From IMG/VR virus record IMGVR_UViG_3300035698_010569, positions 1 to 28,198 of that record: DNA of 28,198 nt. One strand, given 5' to 3'. This DNA is from a virus. Positions 1-25,354 of the stretch are shown here, in pieces. A model generated the notes under the pieces. The model worked only from the letters and a program-made list of their open reading frames with translations. It was not told the DNA's origin and searched no databases. How positions within the stretch are numbered: position 1 is the stretch's first letter; every line of letters starts with the position of its first letter. A program made the position numbers and the translations under genes.

Positions 1-90
1 AGCACCTCTAACAGAATTTTTTAAAAATTTTTGAGGGATCATTATTCTTTTATATAAATTATATAAATTTTGGTAGATAGTAGAGTATGG

Positions 91-103
91 AAAAGCTTAT
101 ATA
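91..103 (+). promoter_or_regulatory. Archaeal promoter of the 5' structured RNA
   Basis: A purine-rich BRE-like stretch (GGAAAAGC) precedes TTATATA at 97-103. The expected archaeal start, about 25 bases downstream of the TATA box, falls near 126-128, exactly where the first stem of RNA module 1 begins. A second TATA-like run (TTTTATATAAA, around 48-57) lies upstream and could serve either strand. Positions are seen; promoter activity is inferred. Confidence 0.6.
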
Positions 104-125
104 CTAGCGATTCTGATAAGAATAG

Positions 126-222
126 TAGGGATAACAACCCGGCAAGGGTTGTAAACTTGGCTGTTGAGCGAAACCCAGTTAAAAGCTGAAATTAGTAAAC
201 TCACCAATGTTGAATATCCCTA
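126..222 (+). ncRNA. Structured RNA module 1
   Basis: The closing stem TAGGGATA (126-133) pairs with TATCCCTA (215-222). Inside is a hairpin ACAACCC (134-140)/GGGTTGT (146-152) with loop GGCAA, then the conserved string CTTGGCTGTT (156-165), then a stem TGAG (165-168)/CTCA (200-203) enclosing a small CAG/CTG hairpin and the string GTAAAC (195-200). The same order of elements recurs in module 2 with different stem sequences. No open reading frame covers it. I do not recognise the RNA family. Confidence 0.6.
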
Positions 223-232
223 TCATATTCAA

Positions 233-356
233 AAGATAGCAACACGCCAAGATAGCAACACGCCAAGGGTGGGGTTGTAGACCTTGGCTGTTAGGTAGAA
301 AAGTAGGTGGACATCAAGACTCCACGAAAAGTAAACTTACCTTGGTCGCATATCTT
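233..356 (+). ncRNA. Structured RNA module 2, paralogue of module 1
   Basis: It repeats the plan of module 1: closing stem AAGATA (249-254)/TATCTT (351-356), hairpin GCAAC/GTTGT, CTTGGCTGTT (283-292), stem AGGTA (293-297)/TACCT (338-342), inner hairpin GTGGA (307-311)/TCCAC (321-325), and GTAAAC (331-336) just before the 3' strand. Stem sequences differ from module 1 but still pair, which favours RNA structure. A 16-base tandem duplication (235-266) doubles its 5' strand. Linkers containing ATATTCA follow module 1 (225-231) and module 2 (358-364). Confidence 0.6.
235..266 (+). repeat. 16-bp tandem duplication at the 5' strand of module 2
   Basis: GATAGCAACACGCCAA occurs twice in perfect tandem (235-250, 251-266). 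Either copy could provide the 5' strand for the TATCTT (351-356) and GTTGT partners, so the module has two alternative registers, or the copy is a recent slippage product. Confidence 0.9.
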
Positions 357-365
357 CATATTCAT

Positions 366-534
366 AGTCCAAGTGACTAGTTGTTGCGATGGGTTCAGGA
401 TTATCCTGTTTCAAAGTTAAGCCTTATCACTCCAACTTACTCGCCCTAAAAAGCCATTGGCTGTTGAACACATTAAGACATCACGAATTCAATTAATTGT
501 CTAATCGGTTCTTGTGTGTTTACCGATGTTGGAC
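366..534 (+). ncRNA. Structured RNA module 3 (divergent)
   Basis: The closing stem is GTCCAA (367-372)/TTGGAC (529-534). Inside are a hairpin CAGGA-TTA-TCCTG (396-408), the shared string TTGGCTGTTGAA (457-468), and a stem AACACA (467-472)/TGTGTT (515-520) that starts right after CTGTT as in modules 1 and 2. An inner stem pairs AGACA with TGTCT (about 476-480/499-503). It is longer and less similar than modules 1 and 2, so membership of the same family is less certain. Confidence 0.45.
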
Positions 535-545
535 ACTTTAACTAA

Positions 546-701
546 TGGGTAAGTTTGCCCGATTGCTGTGCTTTGATTTGTGGTACCAACATTGATAAGG
601 TTGGAATCATGTTTCCGATTGGATAGACTAAGTTGCTTCGATTGTTAGAAGGTACCAAATCTGGCTTTAGGGGAAGGTAGGTGCAAATCCTATGATGCCC
701 A
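546..701 (+). ncRNA. Module 4: tRNA-like element with an expanded central arm
   Basis: The 3' end has tRNA geometry: T-arm GTAGG (677-681)/CCTAT (689-693) with 7-base loop TGCAAAT, two bases, then TGCCC pairing with GGGTA (547-551), then A701 in the discriminator position. TT occupies positions 8-9 (554-555). The middle holds an 11-bp helix, GATTTG-TG-GTACC (575-587) with GGTACCAAATC (651-661). A local hairpin GGGTA-AGTT-TGCCC (547-560) competes with the acceptor-like stem. It could be a tRNA with an intron or a tRNA-like structure; no anticodon can be assigned. An ATATTCA linker follows (707-713). Confidence 0.4.
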
Positions 702-739
702 CGATTATATTCATAAAAACTAAAACGAGGAAATAAACA

Positions 740-874
740 ATGTATGAGAAAAGCCGTTATGATAAGACATACAACAATGATTATAAATGTGATGCAGATG
801 AAAAATTACTTCATGGAGTAATCTTTGAATTAGCTGCTGAATGCCCTTTAAGCTGGATACCTAAAGATGGATAA
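740..874 (+). CDS. Small hypothetical protein, 44 aa
   Basis: This ORF starts at ATG 740 after GAGG (727-730), about nine bases upstream, and ends inside the start region of the next gene (ATGGATAA overlap at 867-874), so translational coupling is likely. The product begins with a charged, Tyr-rich segment and continues with a helix-like stretch around DEKLLHGVIFELAAECP. It has no recognised domain. As the first gene of the cassette that includes a middle-component-like protein and an SMC-like ATPase, it may be a small partner of that system. Confidence 0.5.
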   Translation: MYEKSRYDKTYNNDYKCDADEKLLHGVIFELAAECPLSWIPKDG

Positions 875-1466
875 AGCAATAACTAATTTAATAGCCAAGA
901 TTAATAATAAAAATCTAAAACCTAAAATTAACCTAAATAGGCCCATCTACCTTCAACCAGAAGATAGAATTAGATATCGGGCAATCAGATTAATGATTAT
1001 ATTTGGTCAATTAAAAACAAAAAATGGATTGAGTAAAAAAGTTATAGCTTGTATTGATTTTTTATTAAGAAATACAGGTTTTCAGAAGAAATTCATAATT
1101 GAATATTTTAAAGATCAGAAGAATCTCATATCTAAACTTGATCAATATTGTCCGGAAGATAATATTGTGAATGATTTTAATATAATTCACTATAAAAGTG
1201 TACCCTGGGATTTAAGATACAATGATATGTTCTTGTATCTAAAAACAAGAGATTTAATTTCTTTTAAAGGTGAAAAAGATAAAATACGTTTTTTTTTAAC
1301 TTCAAAAGGGGAAGAAATATATAATATGTTAAAAGATACATTTCCAAATGAAGTTAATTTTTTAGAAATATTTGGTAAGCGAATGGATCAAGAAAAAATA
1401 ATAAATATAATTACAGATGTAATACCTAACACTTATTGGAGGGAAAATGAGAAACTTATCTGTTAA
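867..1466 (+). CDS. ABC-3C middle-component-like protein
   Basis: A 199-aa, Lys/Ile/Asn-rich soluble protein. The segment RPIYLQPEDRIRYRAIRL (about 25-42), followed by an IDFLLRNT motif (about 63-70), resembles what I know of middle components of ABC-three-component (ABC-3C) conflict systems, which couple an SMC-like ATPase to an effector. The C-terminal half (FLTSKGEEIYNMLKD) is helix-forming and winged-helix-like. It overlaps the ATPase gene by 20 bases and has the same very A+T-rich composition, so the two were probably inherited together. The family call rests on motif memory and gene order and could be wrong; a generic SMC-ATPase partner is the alternative. Confidence 0.5.
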   Translation: MDKAITNLIAKINNKNLKPKINLNRPIYLQPEDRIRYRAIRLMIIFGQLKTKNGLSKKVIACIDFLLRNTGFQKKFIIEYFKDQKNLISKLDQYCPEDNIVNDFNIIHYKSVPWDLRYNDMFLYLKTRDLISFKGEKDKIRFFLTSKGEEIYNMLKDTFPNEVNFLEIFGKRMDQEKIINIITDVIPNTYWRENEKLIC

Positions 1467-2961
1467 TGGACTAAAATACAAGATTAAATGCGAGGACAAA
1501 AGCACATATGGTGCGTTTGTTCCATTCAAGAAAGGTTTAAATATAATTTATGGACCTAATTCAGTTGGTAAAAGTAGTATAATTCTGGGATTGATTTATA
1601 GTATGGGTATGGAAAAAAGCATAGGCATATTTCAAAATAAACAAAATCCATTCAAGCCAGAGTTCTACGATAAAATTGATAATAAAAAAGTAATTGAATC
1701 TGAAGTATTTTTAGAGATTTCAAATGGTGATAAGGTTATTACACTTTCTAGACCTCTAATTGGTAAAACTGAGGTTTGTTGCATTAAAGAATGTAAATTG
1801 GAAGATTATGATAACTCCGAAGGAATAGATTTAATTGCCGAAGGTCAAGGGGTCATGAGCGATAATGGACTTCAGAAATACTTATTTGATTTTTTAGATT
1901 GGAATATAGTGGAAGTTCCAAGATATGAAGGAGAACCTTCAAAATTATACATAGAAAATCTTGCACCCTTATTTTATGTTGAACAAACTGCTGGTTGGTC
2001 ACAAATACAGGCGAGGCAGATTACGAGATATGGCGTTAAAGATATTAAAAAAATTGTATTTGAATATTTAATGGGACTTGATAAATTTGAAATTCATTTA
2101 GTAGAACTTAGGCAAAAAGAGCTTAGAGAAAAAATTAATTTCGAAGAATTAGATTTAGAAAACAAAGAAATGAATTTATTAGTACTAGGAAATGCTACTA
2201 CAGATGACGACCATAATTTATTTATTCAACACAATTCCTATGGAAAACTATTAATTACTGATTTAATTAGTCAATTATCTGAAAATGTATCTGAAAAAAT
2301 AGAAAAAATAAAAGATTTAAATAAAACAAAAGAAAATGCGGATTCTTTTGAAAATAGAGAAAGAAATCAATTAAGAGAAACTGCACACAAAAGACGAACG
2401 GTGGCAGATAAAGTTAATGCATTATTAAGAGAAATTTCAAGTTATAATAATTATATAAAGAATATTGAGACTAACAGACTTAAAAACTTACAATTAAGAA
2501 AGATAAATGAAACTTTATCAAATATAAATATAGATTCTTGTCCAATTTGTGAGTCTAAACTATCTAACACTGAAGAAGGATTTTGTCATTTATGTAAGGA
2601 AACTATGACTAAAATATCTTCTCCTGAAGAAAATATTGCTTTTCTCGAGGATGAACGTTCTTCTTTCATCATAATTCTTAAGAAAAAAAGTATAGAACTA
2701 GAAAAGGCAAAACAACAATTAAAAGATCTAAACGAATTGGAAAGAGAACAAATTGAAAAGTTAAATTTTCAATTAAAAACTTATTATGGTGCTGATCTTC
2801 AGAAAATTAGAGAGATTCAATCAGAAGCAGACCAAATTCAAAATGAAATTCAGAAATATAAAACAATCAATAATCAATGGGCGGATTTAGAGGCAATTAG
2901 GGGGAAAATAGGTGAATATATTAATGAAGAAAAGGGATTAAAAGATCGGTGGAAAAAATGA
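1447..2961 (+). CDS. SMC/Rad50-like ABC ATPase, lacking its C-terminal half
   Basis: A 504-aa protein with Walker A GPNSVGKSS (36-44) and a Q-loop-like FYVEQTAGW (177-184). It then has a long coiled coil (about 215-360), a zinc-hook-like CPIC (365-368) and CHLC (380-383), and a returning coiled coil (395-500). SMC-like ATPases normally continue with a second nucleotide-binding half (signature motif, Walker B, D-loop). None is present: the frame stops in the coiled coil exactly where the next gene starts (ATG 2958). Start ATG 1447 follows GGAGGG (1438-1443). With the upstream gene it fits an ABC-3C-like defence cassette. As it stands it could hydrolyse ATP only if the missing half is supplied in trans, so it may be a remnant. 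Confidence 0.75.
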   Translation: MRNLSVNGLKYKIKCEDKSTYGAFVPFKKGLNIIYGPNSVGKSSIILGLIYSMGMEKSIGIFQNKQNPFKPEFYDKIDNKKVIESEVFLEISNGDKVITLSRPLIGKTEVCCIKECKLEDYDNSEGIDLIAEGQGVMSDNGLQKYLFDFLDWNIVEVPRYEGEPSKLYIENLAPLFYVEQTAGWSQIQARQITRYGVKDIKKIVFEYLMGLDKFEIHLVELRQKELREKINFEELDLENKEMNLLVLGNATTDDDHNLFIQHNSYGKLLITDLISQLSENVSEKIEKIKDLNKTKENADSFENRERNQLRETAHKRRTVADKVNALLREISSYNNYIKNIETNRLKNLQLRKINETLSNINIDSCPICESKLSNTEEGFCHLCKETMTKISSPEENIAFLEDERSSFIIILKKKSIELEKAKQQLKDLNELEREQIEKLNFQLKTYYGADLQKIREIQSEADQIQNEIQKYKTINNQWADLEAIRGKIGEYINEEKGLKDRWKK

Positions 2962-3356
2962 TTACTGGAGAACATGTATTGGAAGCTATACGAGTATTAC
3001 AATCTAAAGATATAATGCTTGATAGATTAATCTGTTCATCCAAAGCAATCAATGACCTTCGAAACCATGACCAATTTATTAATCTTCCAAATTATAAGGG
3101 TGCTCAAGAAGTAGGAACCATCTTTGGTATGAAAGTTATCCGAGAAACACTTGTTCAAAATGATTCAATGTATGTCATGGGACCAGATGCTGCTTTGTGC
3201 ATTAATGCTGATGGGACAATGCAAGGGGCTTATGCACCGGGTGGAATTATTGATGCAATGACTAAAGAATTATTAGCTATACACGACCCAAAACCTTTCA
3301 AACCTAAGTGTGGAATTTGTGCAGTTTTAGGAAAATATTGTAAGAGGCATAAATGA
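2958..3356 (+). CDS. Capsid-protein P-domain fragment with Cys/His knuckle tail
   Basis: A 132-aa protein. Residues 30-61 match residues 191-228 of the major capsid protein encoded at 10379: NDLRN (32-36), a following Phe, and GTIFGMKVI (53-61), in order. The upstream helix (2-17) matches the capsid segment before its own MIVG strand. The N-arm and E-loop of an HK97-fold capsid protein are absent. The C-terminus is a CX2CX6CX2H knuckle (C118, C121, C128, H131) after HDPKPFKPK. ATG 2958 is preferred to GTG 2949 because GGTGG (2948-2952) lies just upstream. It may be a capsid-binding accessory, a minor vertex protein or a decoy; the function is unknown. Confidence 0.65.
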   Translation: MITGEHVLEAIRVLQSKDIMLDRLICSSKAINDLRNHDQFINLPNYKGAQEVGTIFGMKVIRETLVQNDSMYVMGPDAALCINADGTMQGAYAPGGIIDAMTKELLAIHDPKPFKPKCGICAVLGKYCKRHK

Positions 3357-3544
3357 CTAAGAAATTTACTCAAGAATATGGTATAGACTTTGCAACTAAA
3401 GGTGGAGATACCTCCATCACTATGACCCATATTAAAAATGCACTTGATACGATTAATGAAGAATCATCAACTATTCACGACCAAAAACCTTTCAAACCTA
3501 AATGTGGGATTTGTGCAGTGCTTGGTAAATATTGCAAGAAACAT
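3279..3544 (+). repeat. Duplicated zinc-knuckle cassette in adjacent genes
   Basis: The coding sequence for the Cys/His tail occurs at 3279-3350 (end of the capsid-fragment gene) and again at 3473-3544 (middle of the next gene). The 24 encoded residues differ at only two positions, and the DNA is also clearly alike (for example AAAACCTTTCAAACCTAA in both, differing at the next base). The two proteins differ outside this tag, which suggests duplication followed by divergence or deletion. Confidence 0.85.
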
Positions 3545-3691
3545 CAAGTTATTGAAGAAAAAAAGGATGGTTCAACTTATGTTAGGTGGAAAAGTAGTAG
3601 TAAATCCATAAGGACGGCTCAAAGATCAAGACAATGGGAGAAATCTATGCCTAGGATAAACAAGAGTGTAGGAGACATAACAACAAGATGA
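3353..3691 (+). CDS. Zinc-knuckle protein, probable reduced paralogue of the capsid fragment
   Basis: A 112-aa protein translated from an ATGA overlap with the preceding gene. It shares the CX2CX6CX2H knuckle (C51, C54, C61, H64). A short helix before it (SITMTHIKNALDTINEES, 21-38) aligns with the first helix of the preceding protein, but the intervening capsid-like strand region is missing. After the knuckle comes a basic tail rich in Arg, Lys and Ser (75-112) that could bind nucleic acid. It looks like a duplicate that lost the capsid-like core and kept the metal-binding tag. Function unknown. Confidence 0.6.
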   Translation: MTKKFTQEYGIDFATKGGDTSITMTHIKNALDTINEESSTIHDQKPFKPKCGICAVLGKYCKKHQVIEEKKDGSTYVRWKSSSKSIRTAQRSRQWEKSMPRINKSVGDITTR

Positions 3692-5059: not shown

Positions 5060-6482
5060 GATTTTGAACGATCCAGTATATTTTATTGAAGAAGTTATCG
5101 GCATGAAGTTGGTATCTTTTCAAGCACAATGGGTCAGAGACATCTTAAAATATCATAGGCTTACTTACATGGCGTTCAGGTCAAGTGGTAAGACTAGACA
5201 ACTGTTCGTAAACTTTTTCCTGTGGTGTGCAATCACTCGACCACAAACTCAATATTTAATAATTTCTAAGACTTTACCTCAAGCAATTGAAGTATTGAAA
5301 AGTATAAGGGTTACAATTCTTACTACTCCAATGTTAAAATCATTAGTACCATCTAATCGTTCACAATCATGGAGTCGTACTGAACTTGAACTTAACAATC
5401 AAAGTAGAATCTTGTCAAAAGCTTACAACGAGAATGTAAGGGGATACCATGTAGATGGTGTTGGTTGCGATGAGATGGGCGAGTATGAAGACCATGAAGT
5501 TTTGAAGAAAGCTGTATTACCAACTATCCGTGCAAAGAGAGGATTCTTTATCGGTGTTGGAACTCCAAAATCTGAATTAGACTTACTACATGAAATCGAA
5601 AGAGACCCTGGCTTCAAATCTATTCACTTTGATAGGTTTCCAGCTGAAGGAGAAAAAGGTGAGTTGTTTAAAGAAAGGTACCCAGACACTATTATCACAA
5701 GAGTTCCTGGTGCCGTTGAGATTCGTGACAAGAAAACTAATCAGATTTTGGAAACTTACAGTAACATGACTTGGGCGCAGGAGTTCTTATTACAACCTGT
5801 TTCTATGAAAGATAAATTGTTCCCAGACGTATTAATCAAAGCTTGTTTAGACCCAACATTATCTTTCCAACCAGCAGTAAAGAATATGTGTCAATATTTC
5901 ATGGGTGTGGACTTTGCAATGTCTGCACAGGCAGGGTCAGATTTTACAGTAATCACCATCTTGGAAAAACACCCTGGGTCTACTAAACTAAAAATTGTTT
6001 GGATGGAGCGTATGCGTGGCATGGATTATGTTATGCAGAAAAGTCGTATTCAAGAACTAGCAATCCAGTATCAAATCACTAAAGCATTAGGCGACGAGAA
6101 CACATTTGGTAAGACTTTCATTTACGATTTGAAAGCTATGGGTGTACCGATTGATGGATATAAGTTCACTTACCAATCCAGTTCCAAAGAAGAGTTAATC
6201 AGAGCATTGCGAGATCAATTTGATAAACAAGGTTTTATAATCCCTTATTCACAAGATGATGTAAAGACATATTCAGTAATCAAAACTATGATTGACGAAC
6301 TGACCAAATTTGGTATTGTGTTCGACATGAAAAAGAAGAAAGTGAGTTTTGAAGGAACTGGTAAACATGACGATTGTGTTATCAGTTTAGGATTGGCAAC
6401 ATTTATTGCAAGGAATATATCTATGGGATTGTTCAGTGCAATCAAAGGAAGTGGGAAACATAACCCATTCATGATGAAATAA
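5022..6482 (+). CDS. terL: Terminase large subunit (packaging ATPase-nuclease)
   Basis: A 486-aa motor protein that pumps DNA into the prohead and cuts it. ATPase domain: Walker A variant RSSGKT (53-58), Walker B VGCDE (147-151) and the coupling-type GVGTP (178-182). RNase H-fold nuclease: VDFA with D297, GDEN with D359 and HDDCVISL with D450/D451, the usual three acidic positions. ATG 5022 (MAKAKQKQLD) is preferred because an N-terminus of this type is usual for the family; an in-frame upstream start at 4950 (510 aa) is possible. Walker A has Ser rather than Gly/Pro residues before GKT, within family variation. Confidence 0.95.
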   Translation: MAKAKQKQLDPNKILNDPVYFIEEVIGMKLVSFQAQWVRDILKYHRLTYMAFRSSGKTRQLFVNFFLWCAITRPQTQYLIISKTLPQAIEVLKSIRVTILTTPMLKSLVPSNRSQSWSRTELELNNQSRILSKAYNENVRGYHVDGVGCDEMGEYEDHEVLKKAVLPTIRAKRGFFIGVGTPKSELDLLHEIERDPGFKSIHFDRFPAEGEKGELFKERYPDTIITRVPGAVEIRDKKTNQILETYSNMTWAQEFLLQPVSMKDKLFPDVLIKACLDPTLSFQPAVKNMCQYFMGVDFAMSAQAGSDFTVITILEKHPGSTKLKIVWMERMRGMDYVMQKSRIQELAIQYQITKALGDENTFGKTFIYDLKAMGVPIDGYKFTYQSSSKEELIRALRDQFDKQGFIIPYSQDDVKTYSVIKTMIDELTKFGIVFDMKKKKVSFEGTGKHDDCVISLGLATFIARNISMGLFSAIKGSGKHNPFMMK

Positions 6483-6483
6483 A

Positions 6484-6561
6484 ATGAAAGAAAAAATAAT
6501 ACTTTATGAAAGCGATATTAAAACAATGATTGTATTTAACATCCTTAAGAAATGTTTATAG
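6484..6561 (+). CDS. Possible 25-aa peptide after terL
   Basis: ATG 6484 opens a 25-codon frame one base after the terL stop, ending at TAG 6561. The product is Lys/Ile-rich. Its 3' end coincides with a TATA-like sequence. It may be a random frame; proximity to terL is the only support. Confidence 0.2.
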   Translation: MKEKIILYESDIKTMIVFNILKKCL

Positions 6562-6590
6562 AGTAATTGTCACTAATGACATTATTGTCA
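6549..6590 (+). promoter_or_regulatory. Candidate promoter plus 23-bp TGTCA-triplet element
   Basis: GAAATG followed by TTTATA (6555-6560) looks like BRE plus TATA box. At 6568-6590 lies TGTCA-CTAA-TGACA-TTAT-TGTCA, three half-sites in alternating orientation at a 9-bp period, where the transcription start would fall. The same arrangement occurs at 13354-13376 and 20978-21000. It may be an operator over the promoter of the downstream RNA. As RNA, either adjacent pair of half-sites forms a 5-bp hairpin. Confidence 0.45.
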
Positions 6591-6593
6591 TAC

Positions 6594-6672
6594 AGCGAGA
6601 TTGGTTGAGATATCACCTAGGGTAATGCGCAACTTAGGAAAGTCTTGTGGGGTTCGATTCCCTTCATCGCTA
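6594..6672 (+). ncRNA. tRNA-like cloverleaf (79 nt)
   Basis: The acceptor-like stem AGCGA (6594-6598)/TCGCT (6667-6671) is followed by discriminator-like A6672. TT fills positions 8-9 (6601-6602). D-like arm TGGT (6602-6605)/ATCA (6612-6615). Central arm CCTAG (6616-6620)/TTAGG (6634-6638) with a 13-base loop. T-arm GGGG/CCCT with canonical loop TTCGATT (6653-6659). Total length fits a tRNA, but the two inner acceptor pairs are mismatched and the central loop is too large for an anticodon loop. It is therefore a degenerate tRNA or a tRNA-like structure rather than an ordinary tRNA. Confidence 0.45.
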
Positions 6673-6674
6673 TT

Positions 6675-6772
6675 GCAAGGCAGGTATCGTTTTAGGCAAC
6701 GAAGCGAAAGGTAATATTACGGGTTATGAATTCTTGTTTTGATCTCCCACCTCCCTCTAAAACCTGTCTTGC
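6675..6772 (+). ncRNA. Structured RNA with a 16-bp long-range stem
   Basis: GCAAGGCAGG (6675-6684) pairs fully with CCTGTCTTGC (6763-6772), one G-U included. After a 5-base bulge, TTTTAG (6690-6695) pairs with CTAAAA (6757-6762). The enclosed 61 bases contain the dyad GTAATATTAC (6711-6720). It begins two bases after the tRNA-like element. No reading frame spans it. Its position between the terminase and portal genes invites comparison with packaging RNAs, but no homology to the phi29 pRNA is visible. Confidence 0.6.
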
Positions 6773-6775
6773 TCA

Positions 6776-6825
6776 TTTTCCTAGAATCAACTGCAAAGCT
6801 TAATTAGGAAAAAATCTTTGGATTC
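6776..6825 (+). ncRNA. Predicted H-type pseudoknot or two-state switch
   Basis: Stem 1 is TTTTCCTA (6776-6783)/TAGGAAAA (6805-6812). Stem 2 is GAATC (6784-6788) plus CAAAG (6794-6798) with CTTTGGATTC (6816-6825). The 5' strand of stem 2 lies in the loop of stem 1 and its 3' strand lies beyond, which is pseudoknot order; sterically they could instead be alternatives. All pairs are Watson-Crick. Bases 6826-6858 hold nothing I can name. Confidence 0.5.
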
Positions 6826-6858
6826 TCCTTAGGGACGGTTGGTGATTGCTTTTTCTTT

Positions 6859-6873
6859 AGATAGTGTTAAAAA
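6859..6873 (+). promoter_or_regulatory. Repeated 15-bp element upstream of portal
   Basis: AGATAGTGTTAAAAA is identical to 26813-26827 upstream of the lysis peptidase gene. In each case AGTGTTAAAAA lies 33 or 32 bases before the start codon. TTAAAAA is at a plausible TATA distance (about 25 bases) from the start codon, so this may be a late promoter or activator site. A partial copy, AGTGTTAAAAAGCCT, lies at 8885-8899. Confidence 0.45.
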
Positions 6874-6895
6874 GCCTAACTTCCTAGTTTAATGA

Positions 6896-8269
6896 ATGGT
6901 AGGCATTCTAGAGAGAGCAAAATCCTTTTTCTTTAAAGAAGGTGGAAAAGCATTCGTGCAAGTTCCAAAAGCAAGGTCATCTTCTTTAATCAGTGAAGAC
7001 CCAGAAGACAACGTAAGTCAAAGGGTTGAACAATTCAAAGTATTAAGACGAGCATATGACAGAGTTCCCTTAATTACTGCAATTATTGATGTTCAAGCAG
7101 ATCAAACTGTTCAAAAGTTCTTTTTTGTAGGTCCAAATGATAAAAAAATCACAGAATTTGCTGATAAAGTGAATTTAATGAGCTTTTTTCACAGAATGAC
7201 CAAATCTATGTTACTTTATGGCAATGCTTATGTAGAAGTTGTTAAAAGTAAGAAAGGCAAAGGTACTATTCAAGAACTCAAAATCATAAATCCTATCTGG
7301 ATGGATGTATGGAGGAAAAATACTGGTGATGTAATTGGATTCACACAAACAATCAAAGGTAAAGAGGCTGTCTTATGGGGTATGACTGGAAATCGTGAAG
7401 CAGATGCAAAATTCCCAAGAAGAATTAAATCTATTGATTCTATTGCACATTTCAAATATAATGTGTTAGGTTCAGAGAAATATGGGCGAAGTATCATAGC
7501 TCCAACTCTTGGACCTCTCCAAGCTAAGTTAGATGTAGAAATGGATCTAGCTAAAGTTATTCACAAATATGTAGCGCCACTTATCTGGGCAAAGGTTGGT
7601 AACGATTCGTTCCCAGCAAATTCAACAGCTGTTGGTGACATTTCAAATACACTTAACGATTTACAAGCTGAGTCTGAAGTTACAACTTCACATCTTGTTG
7701 ATTTACAAGTTCTAGATTTCAATTCTAAAGGTATGGATATTAAGACTCCAATTGAATATTTATCACAACAAATCATAACTGGTGGACAAACGCCTCCAGT
7801 ACTTCTAGGTATCGGTGGAGCTAACAAAGCAGATGCAGAAGTACAACTTAGAGCATTCGGTAGACATATCAAAGCTATTCAAAGAGAACTTAAATATGAA
7901 TTTGAAGATAACATTATTGTTAAACAAGGTTTAGGTACTGAGAAAGATAAACTGATATGGGAACGTTCAGAAGAAAGAGAATGGGAATCTGATGTAGATA
8001 TTCTTAGAGGTTTAGTTACTGATGGAGTTATCACTGCACAGAAAGCTAACGATTTGTTACCTGAAAGATTCAATGAGAAATTGCCAGAACCAGTAGACCC
8101 TATGGGAATGGATCCAAATGGTGTTCAAAAACCTAGACCCAACCAAATGAAAACTGATAAAGTTAAAGATAATCCAAAAGACCCAACTCTTACCACTAAA
8201 GATAAAAAAACTAATGGTGCTAGAGTCAATAAAACTGACAGGGAAATTCCTGTAATGAAGAAGAAATGA
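6896..8269 (+). CDS. Portal protein
   Basis: A 457-aa protein forming the dodecameric channel at the capsid vertex through which DNA passes. Typical portal features are seen: an N-terminal segment with YDRVPLITAIIDVQADQTVQ, a wing with LLYGNAYVEVVK, IINPIWMDVW and the HFKYN...YGRSIIAP region, and a central helix with GGQTPPVLLGIGG and a long following helix (KADAEVQLRAFGRHIKAIQ). The C-terminal 60 residues are Lys/Pro/Asp-rich and probably disordered. It follows the terminase genes, separated only by the structured-RNA locus, and is ATGA-coupled to the next gene. ATG 6896 is the only start that keeps the frame. Confidence 0.9.
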   Translation: MVGILERAKSFFFKEGGKAFVQVPKARSSSLISEDPEDNVSQRVEQFKVLRRAYDRVPLITAIIDVQADQTVQKFFFVGPNDKKITEFADKVNLMSFFHRMTKSMLLYGNAYVEVVKSKKGKGTIQELKIINPIWMDVWRKNTGDVIGFTQTIKGKEAVLWGMTGNREADAKFPRRIKSIDSIAHFKYNVLGSEKYGRSIIAPTLGPLQAKLDVEMDLAKVIHKYVAPLIWAKVGNDSFPANSTAVGDISNTLNDLQAESEVTTSHLVDLQVLDFNSKGMDIKTPIEYLSQQIITGGQTPPVLLGIGGANKADAEVQLRAFGRHIKAIQRELKYEFEDNIIVKQGLGTEKDKLIWERSEEREWESDVDILRGLVTDGVITAQKANDLLPERFNEKLPEPVDPMGMDPNGVQKPRPNQMKTDKVKDNPKDPTLTTKDKKTNGARVNKTDREIPVMKKK

Positions 8270-19942: not shown

Positions 19943-20442
19943 CTCAACCAAGTGAAGTAGTAACAATAACCAGGGATGGACAATCAGTAGACATATTACT
20001 AAAACCTAGTGGTGTAGCTTTTTCGATGGATAAACAATTGAAAGAGATTAATGTACCCAACAATGCTGAGGCACCCAACACATTATTAGTGGATATGGGG
20101 AAACTTAAACAGGCAATGACATTCAATGGATACATTCATAATCAACCTGATGATACAGGTTGGGATAAAAAATCTAGATTAAGAAAGATGCTTTCCTCAT
20201 CTGGTGCAATATCTTTGAAATGGGACGCTAATGACCCTGACCAATGGTCTGGTGGTTCAGTAGGTTCAGGTAATTGGACAGGTTTCGCAGGAAATTTAAT
20301 GAAAGCAGAAATCAAAGAAGTTAATGAGACTTTGTTTGGTTCAGGTCCTTTGTTAGATGTTAGTGGGAATATAGTATTCAAAGCATTCGAGATTCAAATA
20401 GTATTCGCAGTAGGGGACACAATTTCAATCAAATCAACATGA
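19936..20442 (+). CDS. Distal tail-like protein
   Basis: A 168-aa beta-rich protein starting within the end of the tape measure gene. Features: an N-terminal 'VVTITRDGQSVDILLKPSG' strand pair, LLVDMGKLKQAMTFNGYIH (50-68) and a C-terminal strand run (AFEIQIVFAVGDTISIK). The 'l.dlG....i.i.G....' pattern and position after the tape measure fit Dit-like or related proteins at the tail tip that anchor the hub. Confidence 0.55.
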   Translation: MVTQPSEVVTITRDGQSVDILLKPSGVAFSMDKQLKEINVPNNAEAPNTLLVDMGKLKQAMTFNGYIHNQPDDTGWDKKSRLRKMLSSSGAISLKWDANDPDQWSGGSVGSGNWTGFAGNLMKAEIKEVNETLFGSGPLLDVSGNIVFKAFEIQIVFAVGDTISIKST

Positions 20443-21419
20443 GATGGCAAGATGTTAGAGACTTAGGATTAGGTCTATTCAAGAAACAGAACAGATCAAG
20501 AACACTTTGGATAGGTGGCAGTACATCATTTTTAGGATTAATTGCAATGTTACTAATGTTATCTGGAACTTCTGAAGTACATACTGATAATGGGTGTGTT
20601 GGTGAATATGGTAACTATACTGTTTGTGAAGAATATCTTAATTTTACTACTACTTATTGGGCATTTAAGTTTGAAGATTCATTTGAATTGATACAAACTC
20701 AACCCAAGATACACTATGAAGTTTATGTTCCTGCTAGGGGCAAAGGTAATTGGAGATTATGGAACATTACCAAAGACGGAATTAAAAGGAACAATAAGAA
20801 TTATCCTACTAACAAATTCAAAATAGTATTTTACAAGGAAGCATGGCAAGAAGTTAAATGGTGGAGTGATTCACTTGGTGTACCTGATCCTATTTTGAAA
20901 GCTAAGAACTTTAAACTAAAGTCGCCTTGTATTGAGAATAAAACTGTTCAGCATTTGAACTTTACTACTTGTTGGAATGTCACTTATGACATTAATGTCA
21001 CTTGTTATCCAGATTGGAACACAACTTGTGAACATTGTGAAGTGTTTGCAAACAGTACACAACACTGCTGGAATGAAGAAAGTTATACAAGACAATATTG
21101 TAATTCTACTTATTATTATACAACTGAATGTGCAAAGAGAGATCCTAGACAATTCCTAAAATATGGAAACGAATATGTTTTGACTAAAGAAGAATTAAAC
21201 ATTTACTGTTCACAAGAAAAAGTGAGAATTATCTGTGACGAATGTCCTGATGAAACTGGTGAAAATGATGCTAACTGTGATGGTAAGATTCAACTTGGAG
21301 AAACTGGTGTTCAGTTTAGAAAGAATAAACCACCAAGAGAATTTGGTTTTAATGGTGAACGGGTAATTAAGAAGAAGATTGGAAAATATTTCGGATTGAA
21401 ATGGGGTAGTTTCAAATGA
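20439..21419 (+). CDS. Membrane-anchored, Cys-rich glycoprotein
   Basis: A 326-aa protein with a basic N-terminus and one membrane span (about 23-43, WIGGSTSFLGLIAMLLMLSG), so the rest should face outside. The ectodomain has many cysteines and about ten N-X-S/T sequons (NYT, NFT, NIT, NKT, NVT, NTT, NST), mostly in its middle. The C-terminus contains a short acidic loop (DETGENDANCDGKIQLGE), like a dockerin/EF-hand-type calcium motif. It is ATGA-coupled to the tail genes. It could act in host recognition, superinfection exclusion or egress; none is shown by sequence. Confidence 0.7.
   Translation: MRWQDVRDLGLGLFKKQNRSRTLWIGGSTSFLGLIAMLLMLSGTSEVHTDNGCVGEYGNYTVCEEYLNFTTTYWAFKFEDSFELIQTQPKIHYEVYVPARGKGNWRLWNITKDGIKRNNKNYPTNKFKIVFYKEAWQEVKWWSDSLGVPDPILKAKNFKLKSPCIENKTVQHLNFTTCWNVTYDINVTCYPDWNTTCEHCEVFANSTQHCWNEESYTRQYCNSTYYYTTECAKRDPRQFLKYGNEYVLTKEELNIYCSQEKVRIICDECPDETGENDANCDGKIQLGETGVQFRKNKPPREFGFNGERVIKKKIGKYFGLKWGSFK
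20978..21000 (+). repeat. 23-bp TGTCA-triplet element inside a gene
   Basis: TGTCA-CTTA-TGACA-TTAA-TGTCA, same spacing as 6568 and 13354. Here it is in frame with the repeated Asn-Val-Thr sequons of the glycoprotein gene, so coding constraint could explain it. Confidence 0.4.
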
Positions 21420-24400
21420 ACTGGAAATTATTATTAATGAGTTTAGCGTTAGTATTATGCTTTGTTAGTTTTGTAAGTGCTGCTGAAATATGTAGCTTTA
21501 TTTATGATGATGACCTTATTGGTATTGCTGATAAATTTAATAGAACACCTTCTGCTAACTTAGGAACTTCAAATACTGGTCAAGCATGGACAGAACAATC
21601 TGGAGATAGTATAGCTTCAGAATCCTGGACTTTTGTTAGTAGTGGTGCACTGTCTTATATTACAGATGCTATTTTTGACAATTCAGGGGTATATACTATA
21701 GGTATGCAATTAAATATGACTTTAAATTCATCAGGTGCTTATGGTTTTAATATGGGTGGTGCTTCTGGTGACCCCTTAGGTGAAATATTAGATTACGATA
21801 ATAGGGTGGCAGATAAAATAAGAGTATGTGCCGATGCTGGTGCGGGTGCAACTACTGTTAATACTTACATTGGCGATTATATCATTAAAGCTTTCTGGGG
21901 TAATGGTGATGTTTTAGTTCAAACATTCGATTCTTTTGGTACATTCATAGAAAGTATCACTTCAAGTGTAGCTGGATGTTTCGATGGAGATAGAATGAAC
22001 AGAGGATATTCTTATGGTGCCGGTAATTCAGTTCATGAGATGATAATATTCAACACAACTGGTGATACCGATTTCTGTCCAATTCCTAATTATCCAACCA
22101 CTTTCACTAACAACGATTCAACATCTTACAATACCTCTCACATTAATGCTACAATTACTATTTCAGATGATAATGGTATTGATAAATATTATACACAAGT
22201 TTGGAACGGTACTTCTGTAGGTTGGCAAAATAACACATCATCTATAGAAGTTAATTATTACTCTGGCAACTCAGAAACTTTAATCAATGCAACTGATTTA
22301 GTTGCTAAGACTTGGGACATTTATCAATGGTGTGCAGAAGATGATACAGGAACAACAACTTGTTCAGGAAACATTTCAACAGTAACCTCATTTCCAGGAG
22401 ATGTTAATATCTTAGACAGTTCTGTTTATTATACTTCAGTTGGTAATCAATCAATTGGACGACAAACTAATGGTACTTATTTAACTCTTACTGCTGGAGA
22501 TTCTACTCCAACTTTCAATGCAGTTACTAATGGGAGTGCAACTTGTTCATTGAATGGAACTGAGTGTGGGACTACTGGTGAAACACTTCAAGTATGTACT
22601 TATCCGACAGCATTACCTGATGGATTAAACCCAATAGATTTCGTATGTGTAGCAGGAGATTATTCTAACAAGGGTACTGGTGCAAACACTTTAAACATTA
22701 CAATAGATACCACTGGTCCAGAGATTATTGGGCTTAATGCAACAGATACAAGCACAGCACCAATTTTATCATGGACATGTAATGAAGGCTGTAATTATTC
22801 TATGAATGTTTATAATGATAGTGGATTAACAGCTTTGGCTTATTCAAATGAGAATAATACTTTTGCATTAGCTTTTAATGATCTAGGTTCAAATGTTGTT
22901 CCAGGGAATACTTATTATTCAGAATTAACTGTATGGGACATCCTAAGCAATTCAAACACTAACAATACTTATTCATTCACAATTGACCCTTGTGTAGTTA
23001 CTCTATTACTTGACGGATTAGATGCTTCTAGAAAGTATGAGTTAGGAACAACTGCTAACTTATCAATGTCTAATAATTGTGCAGGATTTTCTAACTGTTT
23101 ATCAATTGACCATCAAGGTTATGGTGACAATTATGTTTGTAACACAACTGATTCATGGATGTATAATTTGAAGATTAATAACATTTCATACACTAACTTA
23201 TATGATGGTTCATTATGGGTAAATACCACTAACAATAGTGTGGTTGATTTCACTAACTTTGTTGATGAGTTAGCTTTGTACCAATTCCAATTGAAAGGTT
23301 ATAATACAACTACTACTTACCCAGAGAATGTGGTTATGGATATATATTCAGATGGAATTGATGATGTAGTTTATCCTGGGTTTATGAACGCAACTCATGT
23401 GTATGATACAAGATTCACTAATGGATTGAGTGGTGAAGAGATTTTCTTTACAGTTGGTGAAGTCAAAACAAGATACATCAATTATACAACTAACAATGAT
23501 AACACTTATAACAATGTTACATTCCAAGTGAGAGGATTCCAATCTGGATCATTCAAGTTTAATCATGAAGATAATTTCTTGAACACAACTAACATCAGTT
23601 CAACTACTAATGGGATTTTATCTATTCCTTATGATGATTTCAGTGTTGGAGATACAATTTCCAGATGGAGTGGAGATTATACTGTAACTCAAGATGTTGA
23701 AGTGTATGGTGTAGCAACATCAACTTCATCTGTCGGTGGGACTTGTGTACTTATCCAAGGTTCAGATTCTAACAATTTCCAATCAGCTAAACTTGATCTG
23801 GAAAATGCTAATGAATGGGATTTTATAGTTAATATGGCGTCATATTATTCTAGGCAAAGTTCATGTTATGTTTCTCATACTTGTAGTGGTAGTTCTAATA
23901 TAGGAATAAAAGATATAACTTCTGGTGTATATACACCTATTGAAACTCAAGGAGATTTTGGTGCGTCCGTGACTTATACTATAAATATCCAGAAAGTTGG
24001 TACTAACTTCAAATGGTATCGTAATGGTGCCTTCCGACAAAATATACCTTATGATTCAACACACGAATATGAGTTGTATGCAGAACAAAATGCAAATTCT
24101 TGGGCAAAGTTAGATGGTTTTGGTAATCCCTACACTTGTGGTGGTTCAGCTTATACAAGAATTAAACCATTAAACTTTACAGGATTCACAACCTTATACA
24201 ATAATGGAAGTATGAGTTGGAATACAACCAAAGAAGCTGAACTAATCAGTGTAGGATTTATTGTGGCACAGAACATTACAAGGGCTAAACTTACAACTAC
24301 TAGTCTAAACACTAATGGTGGGAGTTATGAGCTGTATCTTTCAAACAATAATGGGAGTGATTGGGAATCAGTTAATGATGATGCATTCCATGTGTTCACA

Positions 24401-25354
24401 AGTGTGGGTGATATATTGAGAGCTAAGATTAATCTTACAGTTACTGATACTGATGAACCTTTAACATTAATCAGTTACGCATTAGAAATCAGTGATGGGA
24501 CTATCAATAACTTGAAAGTATATTTGGTTTCAACAGATGGGACTATTGTATTCAATTCAACAGGTGTGTTAAATGAAACAAATTCGCCACAAACTGTAAA
24601 CATTGCAGGTTCAGATATTAAAGCAGCTTTGGATAAAAGTGAGAGTTCATATGCAATCCCTATCATATTCACTTCAGATTCAGCAGGTAAGTTGAATTAT
24701 AGTGATTTGAGTTACTCAATGGATTTAGATGCAACAGACATTACCCTTGTAGTCAATTCAAGCTCAGAATTCAATGCAACTATAACTTTTGATGGAGATG
24801 GAAAGGTTGAATTAAATAGCCTTAATATGCAGTATTATGGGAATAAGAATATCAATATAACTTATACACAATTGAGTGGAACAACTCAAAATGATATGAT
24901 TATGAGGTATTCACCATTCAACATTACTTATCCTAACAAAATCTACTGGTGGGACTTTTTCCCAACAGCAAGAAATCAAAGTAACATTTCAGCTTATGGA
25001 CAAACTTCAAATCAAGGTATTTGGAATTTCACTGCAAATGCTGTGACTCACACTGAGGGTGTAGATATTTATGCAAAATACCAACAGGATATGAGTGATA
25101 CTTGTTTGACCAGACTTGAAGTTGTTGGTTGGAACAATACTAACAATGGTTCAATATCCTCAGACTTAAGCTTAAACACTTCACAATTAATTGATAATGC
25201 TAATTCAACAACTGAAAATTATGGTTGGACTTATGCAAGTATTGATTGTAACGAGACACAAACAGTGGTTATACCTTATGTGTGTATATTCAGTTTGTGT
25301 GAAGGTTGTGTAAAAACCCAAGATTGGGAGGACGATTGCGATTTCGTAGAATAA
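21416..25354 (+). CDS. Very large secreted adhesin-like glycoprotein
   Basis: A 1312-aa protein with an N-terminal signal peptide (LLLMSLALVLCFVSFVSA, likely cut after VSA-22). Residues about 39-220 resemble a concanavalin-like fibre domain (FNRTPSANLGTSNTGQAW). Around 440-525 lies an Ig/fibronectin-like unit (LSWTCNEGCNYSMNVYNDSG), and near 720-915 a second jelly-roll-like domain (FSVGDTISRWSGDYTV; FKWYRNGAFR). Dozens of N-X-S/T sequons occur throughout. No C-terminal anchor is seen; the end is Cys-rich and acidic (EGCVKTQDWEDDCDF). The signal peptide means the protein is exported, unlike ordinary tail fibres. It is probably a surface adhesin. Confidence 0.75.
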   Translation: MNWKLLLMSLALVLCFVSFVSAAEICSFIYDDDLIGIADKFNRTPSANLGTSNTGQAWTEQSGDSIASESWTFVSSGALSYITDAIFDNSGVYTIGMQLNMTLNSSGAYGFNMGGASGDPLGEILDYDNRVADKIRVCADAGAGATTVNTYIGDYIIKAFWGNGDVLVQTFDSFGTFIESITSSVAGCFDGDRMNRGYSYGAGNSVHEMIIFNTTGDTDFCPIPNYPTTFTNNDSTSYNTSHINATITISDDNGIDKYYTQVWNGTSVGWQNNTSSIEVNYYSGNSETLINATDLVAKTWDIYQWCAEDDTGTTTCSGNISTVTSFPGDVNILDSSVYYTSVGNQSIGRQTNGTYLTLTAGDSTPTFNAVTNGSATCSLNGTECGTTGETLQVCTYPTALPDGLNPIDFVCVAGDYSNKGTGANTLNITIDTTGPEIIGLNATDTSTAPILSWTCNEGCNYSMNVYNDSGLTALAYSNENNTFALAFNDLGSNVVPGNTYYSELTVWDILSNSNTNNTYSFTIDPCVVTLLLDGLDASRKYELGTTANLSMSNNCAGFSNCLSIDHQGYGDNYVCNTTDSWMYNLKINNISYTNLYDGSLWVNTTNNSVVDFTNFVDELALYQFQLKGYNTTTTYPENVVMDIYSDGIDDVVYPGFMNATHVYDTRFTNGLSGEEIFFTVGEVKTRYINYTTNNDNTYNNVTFQVRGFQSGSFKFNHEDNFLNTTNISSTTNGILSIPYDDFSVGDTISRWSGDYTVTQDVEVYGVATSTSSVGGTCVLIQGSDSNNFQSAKLDLENANEWDFIVNMASYYSRQSSCYVSHTCSGSSNIGIKDITSGVYTPIETQGDFGASVTYTINIQKVGTNFKWYRNGAFRQNIPYDSTHEYELYAEQNANSWAKLDGFGNPYTCGGSAYTRIKPLNFTGFTTLYNNGSMSWNTTKEAELISVGFIVAQNITRAKLTTTSLNTNGGSYELYLSNNNGSDWESVNDDAFHVFTSVGDILRAKINLTVTDTDEPLTLISYALEISDGTINNLKVYLVSTDGTIVFNSTGVLNETNSPQTVNIAGSDIKAALDKSESSYAIPIIFTSDSAGKLNYSDLSYSMDLDATDITLVVNSSSEFNATITFDGDGKVELNSLNMQYYGNKNINITYTQLSGTTQNDMIMRYSPFNITYPNKIYWWDFFPTARNQSNISAYGQTSNQGIWNFTANAVTHTEGVDIYAKYQQDMSDTCLTRLEVVGWNNTNNGSISSDLSLNTSQLIDNANSTTENYGWTYASIDCNETQTVVIPYVCIFSLCEGCVKTQDWEDDCDFVE

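What the first reader, a model, noticed from the sequence alone, without database searches (positions are those of the whole stretch)
126..701. Tandem modular structured RNA driven by its own promoter
About 600 bases without a gene hold modules of shared plan. Modules 1 and 2 both have closing stem, first hairpin, CTTGGCTGTT, a stem opening right after it, an inner hairpin, and GTAAAC before the 3' strand. Paired positions change together (TGAG/CTCA versus AGGTA/TACCT; TAGGGATA/TATCCCTA versus AAGATA/TATCTT). Module 3 keeps TTGGCTGTT plus a following stem, and ATATTCA linkers separate the units. The first stem begins where the TATA box predicts transcription start. I know no RNA family of this form.
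Basis: partly seen in the sequence, partly recalled or inferred. Interest (0 to 1): 0.8.

Follow-up and report, generated by a model that had tools for sequence, protein, structure and literature searches.

The report
Modular viral RNA before gutted Lamassu
A tailed virus, probably of archaea, carries about 600 bases of repeated, folded, non-coding RNA just behind its first promoter and in front of what looks like a stripped-down copy of a microbial antivirus system (Lamassu); no relative or known RNA family matches it, so it is a good candidate for a new RNA whose function still has to be tested.

Summary
Bases 126-715 hold no gene and are the most G+C-rich 576-base stretch of the record. They lie behind a left-end TATA promoter that relatives share. 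Modules 1 and 2 are true tandem relatives (0 of 2000 shuffles) with compensatory changes in the closing stem and in a helix carrying an invariant CUGU bulge. Module 3 shares the bulged helix but is weaker, and the tail (657-715) may be a fourth, eroded copy. RNAalifold finds the bulged helix unaided (3 of 500 shuffles). Against this, all covariation comes from three copies in one genome. A model of modules 1+2 does not recover module 3, energy models prefer another fold for module 2, and no homolog turned up in Rfam, relatives or the collections searched. New context: a Lamassu-like operon without its weapon follows. A 44-aa ORF resembles the LmuA C-terminal tail, LmuC follows, and LmuB lacks its C-terminal lobe. 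The RNA stands where the LmuA effector would be coded. Relatives lack both RNA and operon, so this is variable cargo. My best reading is a structured leader or non-coding RNA whose repeated bulged helices are protein-binding sites. The structured RNA is likely; the mechanism is a guess.

The parts
1..40 (.). Left end of the linear genome, a terminus shared by relatives (context)
   Evidence: Contigs L002, L010, L014, L015, L018, L022 and L024 begin at the same sequence (GACACCTC...CATAATTTT...GAAAATT); L027 begins with a diverged version
90..107 (+). Archaeal-type left-end promoter GAAAAGCTTATATACTAG (BRE/TATA)
   Evidence: Aligned with L022, L024, L027, L015; predicted start about 122-128
126..222 (+). 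Module 1: P1 126-133/215-222, P2 hairpin 134-152, P3 154-160 + CUGU bulge 161-164 + 165-168 / 200-211, inner hairpin about 176-188
   Evidence: z -3.58 for 120-229
224..231 (+). Linker CATATTCA after module 1
   Evidence: family D8
235..266 (+). 16-nt tandem duplication GATAGCAACACGCCAA x2; the first copy can pair with the conserved CUUGGCUGUU of module 2 (alternative fold)
249..356 (+). Module 2: P1 AAGATA/TATCTT, P2 hairpin, P3 GACC..GG + CUGU bulge 288-291 + TAGGT 292-296 / ACTTA 335-339 CC, inner hairpin 307-310/322-325
357..364 (+). Linker CATATTCA after module 2
415..543 (+). Module 3 (diverged): P1 415-420/538-543, TTGG 457-460 + CUGU 461-464 + TGAACACA 465-472 / TGTGTTTA 515-522 CCGA
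   Evidence: not recovered by a model of M1+M2
657..715 (+). Possible eroded fourth module (CTGGCTTTAGG..GGTAGGTGCAAATC..CCCACGA..ATATTCAT)
   Evidence: Aligns with module 2: 5 to 28 of 2000 shuffles by gap cost; 2 of 198 genome segments
740..874 (+). 44-aa ORF resembling only the C-terminal tail of LmuA (G-x-I-x-E-...-C-P-L)
   Evidence: 6 of 7 motif positions shared by nine LmuA proteins; 53 of 300000 shuffles, 3 of 36471 control ORFs; no HMM hit
867..1466 (+). LmuC-like middle component
   Evidence: PADLOC LmuC PDLC03869, E 5e-9
1447..2961 (+). LmuB-like SMC/Rad50-type ATPase with Walker A and zinc hook but no C-terminal lobe (504 aa against 674)
   Evidence: PADLOC LmuB PDLC03863, E 1e-48, profile 16-440 of 610; 25% identity to a Mesorhizobium LmuB over residues 19-463 of 674

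Best explanation
Bases 126-715 are transcribed from the left-end promoter as a structured non-coding RNA of about 590 nt. It consists of tandem modules (two clear, one diverged, one eroded). Each clear module can form a closing stem, a side hairpin and a long helix with an invariant 4-nt CUGU bulge set between G-C pairs and a U-A pair. The RNA is the first element of a cargo cassette behind the promoter, in the place where a Lamassu operon would code its LmuA effector; the operon behind it keeps only an LmuA-like tail, LmuC and a LmuB without C-terminal lobe. Most likely mechanism (inferred, not shown): the bulged helices are repeated binding sites for one protein, viral or host, either in trans as a decoy or scaffold, or in cis to control expression of the disarmed Lamassu proteins. 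Shown by sequence: promoter homology, module homology, absence of coding capacity, operon identity. Inferred: transcription, folding, binding, control.
For: Module homology M1/M2 0 of 2000 shuffles and M2/M3 2-50 of 2000 by gap cost. Triple 9-mer 0 of 1000. RNAalifold on the unaided MAFFT alignment of three modules finds the helix with the CUGU bulge, z -3.6, 3 of 500 column shuffles. For the named structure 83% of cells pair against 31-45% for slid versions, 5 pairs change on both sides, and the P3 core is 100% paired. G+C peak, rank 1 of 1382. Promoter shared with relatives, in most of which the first ORF starts 27-50 bases after the TATA element against 644 here. No coding similarity in the region. 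Lamassu context. Relatives carry other genes at the left end and no LmuB, so the segment is cargo.
Against: Only one genome has it; the covariation comes from paralogs of that genome. Leave-one-out recovery of module 3 fails. The energy model prefers other folds: M1 by 2.3 kcal/mol; M2 by 2.7 kcal/mol for 248-364, and for 232-358 an alternative fold of -33.8 kcal/mol uses the duplicated 16-nt copy and hides the motif. The whole region is not unusually stable (z -1.05). No expression data, no binding partner, no processing site known.
Confidence: 0.4

Rival explanations
1. Cis-acting leader: the tandem modules are a ligand- or protein-sensing 5' UTR (riboswitch-like or attenuator-like) that controls translation of the 44-aa ORF, LmuC and LmuB. 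The duplicated 16-nt copy in module 2 makes it bistable.
For: The RNA ends about 25 bases before the first ORF, with no terminator-like site in 1-900. GAGG precedes the ATG at 740. Module 2 has two competing folds, one hiding CUUGGCUGUU. Relative L015 also has a stable leader behind the same promoter (z -3.0).
Against: No known riboswitch matches. Little sequence outside GGCUGUU, GAAA, AGUAAAC and ACC is invariant between M1 and M2 single-stranded parts, less than typical for a ligand pocket. The modules lie far from the start codon.
Confidence: 0.25
2. Functional remnant or degenerate sequence: an older duplicated element (cargo in decay, like the truncated lmuA and lmuB beside it), with structure kept only by recent shared ancestry of the copies.
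For: The neighbouring operon is truncated at both the effector and LmuB. The copies diverge from M1/M2 to M3 to the tail. The leave-one-out model fails on M3.
Against: Compensatory changes in P1 and P3 are not expected from neutral drift. The lmuC and lmuB frames are still open and overlapping. The region has the highest G+C in the genome.
Confidence: 0.2
3. Packaging or genome-end RNA: an RNA made at the left terminus that works with the terminase, like the pRNA of phi29.
For: It lies next to the genome terminus, and module 1 can form a three-way junction.
Against: Relatives with about 70% identical terminase and the same terminus lack it. No Rfam match.
Confidence: 0.03
4. A large ornate phage RNA of the GOLLD/ROOL kind that self-assembles.
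For: Similar length, viral location, and a tRNA-like stretch elsewhere in the genome (6594-6671). GOLLD and ROOL lie near tRNA islands (PMC12286853).
Against: No match to any Rfam family in 126-715 even at E up to 10. Tandem modules of one plan are not the published architecture.
Confidence: 0.08

Closest known systems
GOLLD and ROOL RNAs (phage and prophage ornate RNAs, PMC12286853)
   Same: Viral origin, several hundred nt, several helices, function unknown
   Different: No Rfam match; tandem modules with one repeated plan; virus with archaeal-type promoters; sits at the genome terminus and in front of a defence-like operon
phi29 packaging RNA (pRNA)
   Same: Encoded near the left genome end; contains a three-way junction with a bulged helix (pRNA facts from general knowledge)
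   Different: Several modules in one transcript; absent in close relatives with the same terminase; no Rfam match
Lamassu (ABC-3C) defence operon, PMC10586767
   Same: LmuC-like and LmuB-like genes in the usual order with overlapping frames; an LmuA-like C-terminal tail upstream
   Different: No effector domain, LmuB lacks its C-terminal lobe, and about 600 nt of structured RNA stand where the effector is normally coded
Tandem riboswitch leaders (e.g. tandem glycine type)
   Same: Repeated aptamer-like modules in a leader
   Different: No family match; few invariant positions; spacer to the start codon taken up by further structured RNA

Membership tests
Any Rfam family, GOLLD, ROOL and riboswitches included | Covariance-model score at or above the gathering threshold | tested here: not met
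   No hit at the gathering threshold in the window; in 1-900 up to E 10 only two sub-threshold hits, neither in 126-715
GOLLD/ROOL-like ornate RNA | Homo-oligomeric assembly through kissing loops and A-minor contacts | not testable with these tools
   Needs native gel or cryo-EM
phi29-type pRNA | Needed by the packaging motor, hence kept with the terminase | tested here: not met
   No modules in relatives with about 70% identical terminase
Lamassu operon | SMC-like LmuB | tested here: met
   PDLC03863, E 1e-48
Lamassu operon | Complete LmuB with C-terminal ATPase lobe | tested here: not met
   504 aa; match ends at 440 of 610 of the profile and at residue 463 of a 674-aa LmuB
Lamassu operon | Middle component LmuC | tested here: met
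   PDLC03869, E 5e-9; pairwise comparison with one bacterial LmuC is weak
Lamassu operon | LmuA effector with enzymatic domain | tested here: not met
   Only a 44-aa ORF with the C-terminal motif (6 of 7 positions); no LmuA similarity in 126-739 in any frame
tRNA or tmRNA | Cloverleaf or tmRNA fold | tested here: not met
   ARAGORN finds none in the window; relaxed settings on 1-900 and 6401-7000 give no credible gene

The most novel reading that the evidence does not exclude
A structured RNA has taken the place of the protein effector in a Lamassu-derived cassette: the virus carries an RNA-armed or RNA-guided LmuC/LmuB complex, or a decoy cassette in which RNA and truncated Lamassu proteins together block the host's Lamassu.
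Probability: 0.07. Interest if true: 0.88.

Novelty: new variant of a known kind. Interest (0 to 1): 0.52.

Why it matters
Few structured non-coding RNAs are described from archaeal viruses (the one literature search tried found only two general papers). This one has an internal control (diverging tandem copies that keep pairing) and a telling neighbourhood: a Lamassu-like operon that seems to have lost its weapon but kept the docking tail and part of the sensor. If the RNA works together with those proteins it would be a new way for a virus to use or block an SMC-type defence. If it does not, it is still a well-bounded candidate for a new RNA family at a defined genome terminus.

Tried and rejected
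Antisense pairing of CTTGGCTGTT with the lmuC start (889-899): four equally good sites in 28 kb, so chance. Kink-turn, hammerhead, box C/D and H/ACA readings, by eye only: defining bases absent. IMG/VR pattern scans for the modules: the hits I read lie in coding-like regions or fail the covariance model; the best (L205, L207, L227, 22.9 bits) is in a region without long plus-strand ORFs that I judged antisense to a coding strand without translating it. Left-terminus scan: the contigs that begin at the motif are members already known. blastn and nhmmer against relatives, blastn against phage and plasmid records, covariance model R1 against relatives, pattern loci and bacterial Lamassu loci: nothing. 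Host by terminase in GTDB genomes: only distant hits of 22-28%, mostly Patescibacteria. Decayed LmuA gene inside the RNA region: no similarity.

Full report
What the window is. The record is 28,198 bases and classed as a virus. It codes a large terminase, a portal and an HK97-type capsid protein. Distant matches include the terminase of an Altiarchaeum virus (21%) and the capsid protein of Halogranum tailed virus 1 (22.5%). Promoters at the left end (GAAAAGCTTATATA) and the right end (CGAAACGTTTATATA) are of archaeal TATA/BRE type, so I take it as a tailed virus of an archaeon; the host was not identified. Relatives with about 70% identical terminase or capsid protein were fetched. The contigs of L002, L010, L014, L015, L018, L022 and L024 begin with the same sequence as base 1 of the window, and L027 with a diverged form, so base 1 is most likely a physical, conserved genome end.

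The promoter is supported by comparison. GAAAAG[C/T]TTATATACTAG in the window aligns with the left-end promoters of L022, L027, L015 and L024. In L002, L010, L018, L022, L024 and L027 the first ORF starts about 27-50 bases after the TATA element (for L022 taking the ATG at 87). In the window 644 bases separate the two, and in L015 about 130, the latter also occupied by stable hairpins.

The modules. M1 (126-222) and M2 (249-356) are homologous over their whole length (0 of 2000 shuffles at three gap costs). M3 (415-543) shares TTGGCTGTT, the stretch ACATyAAGACnyCACGAA with M2, and ACCnATGTTG with M1; it is significant against M2 (11, 2 and 50 of 2000 shuffles at the three gap costs) and not against M1. 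The tail at 657-715 aligns with M2 (5, 28 and 16 of 2000; 2 of 198 control segments of the genome) and may be an eroded fourth copy. TTGGCTGTT occurs three times; none of 1000 shuffles had any 9-mer three times.

The fold. On an unaided MAFFT alignment of the three modules RNAalifold returns one long helix with a 4-nt bulge, CUGU, on its 5' side (z -3.6, 3 of 500 column shuffles; a second alignment gives z -3.0, 6 of 500). M1 and M2 alone, in the MAFFT alignment, give only z -1.55. Counting pairs for that helix plus the closing stem: 83% of cells pair against 31-45% when the partners are slid, and five pairs change on both sides. In the same register the core reads TGAG/CTCA, TAGG/CTTA and TGAA/TTTA in M1, M2 and M3. 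The closing stem changes GG/CC to AA/TT. M1 and M2 can both be drawn as a three-way junction with the same short linkers, and both have GAA opposite AGUA between P3 and the inner hairpin, the consensus of a loop-E (bulged-G) motif; that last point is a sequence resemblance only. M1 is far more stable than shuffles (z -3.58). Energy models do not prefer the shared fold: M1 -28.1 against -30.4, M2 -25.9 against -28.6, M3 -21.2 against -22.2 kcal/mol. For M2 with its duplicated 16-nt piece, a fold of -33.8 pairs the first copy with CUUGGCUGUU. M2 may therefore be bistable, or the shared fold may be wrong for M2. The constrained values for M2 used a misplaced closing stem and are not used.

Is it non-coding? 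No frame is open beyond 39 aa before base 740. The region has the highest G+C of all 576-base windows, a known signature of structured RNA in A+T-rich genomes. No LmuA similarity is detectable in it.

The neighbour operon. ORF 867-1466 matches LmuC and ORF 1447-2961 matches LmuB of PADLOC. Bacterial homologs found by tblastn lie in lmuA-lmuC-lmuB operons. The window's LmuB keeps Walker A and a CPxC zinc hook but stops at 504 aa; the C-terminal lobe is missing. The 44-aa ORF at 740-874, which overlaps the lmuC start, ends ...GVIFELAAECPLSWIPKDG. Nine bacterial LmuA proteins all end in a motif [IV]-x-[EDST]-W-x-x-x-C-[PN]-[LI]-x-[FYL]; the ORF has 6 of 7 positions (53 of 300000 shuffles; 3 of 36471 control ORFs), although the motif was chosen after seeing the sequences and a general HMM gives no significant score. 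I read this as the LmuA docking tail without effector. The RNA thus stands where the effector would be coded. None of the 14 virus records tested has LmuB, and the left-end genes differ from virus to virus, so RNA plus operon are cargo.

Search for homologs. Nothing in Rfam, phage or plasmid records by blastn, relatives, IMG/VR pattern scans filtered by a covariance model, or the bacterial Lamassu loci.

Verdict. That a structured RNA is encoded here I hold at about 0.75; that its modules act as repeated protein-binding sites, in trans or in cis, at about 0.4 together with the rest of the statement; a cis-regulatory leader is the main rival. It is not assigned to any known family.

Noticed in passing
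window 1-40; starts of L002, L010, L014, L015, L018, L022, L024: Conserved left genome terminus GACACCTC...; contigs of this virus group start exactly there, so they are probably linear with a fixed end.
   Followed up: partly
window 6483-6895: Second ORF-free gap, between terminase and portal (absent in L002), with a tRNA-like stretch 6594-6671 (AGCGA...GGGGTTCGATTCCC...TCGCT) not called by ARAGORN, then an interrupted 16-bp stem and another hairpin; the whole does not fold better than shuffles.
   Followed up: partly
window 674-702: T-arm-like GTAGG-TGCAAAT-CCTAT followed by GATGCCCA at the end of the RNA region; no matching acceptor strand seen.
   Followed up: no
window 2949-3691: Two neighbouring ORFs share a cysteine motif (KPFKPKCGICAVLGKYCKxH); the first carries a stretch resembling the C-terminal part of the major capsid protein (NDLRN...GTIFGMKVI).
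   Followed up: no
window 1447-2961: LmuB-like protein ends naturally (ATGA overlap with the next ORF) without the C-terminal ATPase lobe.
   Followed up: partly
L015 90-180: Another relative has a short, very stable unrelated leader (z -3.0) between the left-end promoter and its first ORF.
   Followed up: partly
window 20439-25354: Two proteins very rich in N-x-S/T sites, as in surface proteins of archaeal viruses.
   Followed up: no
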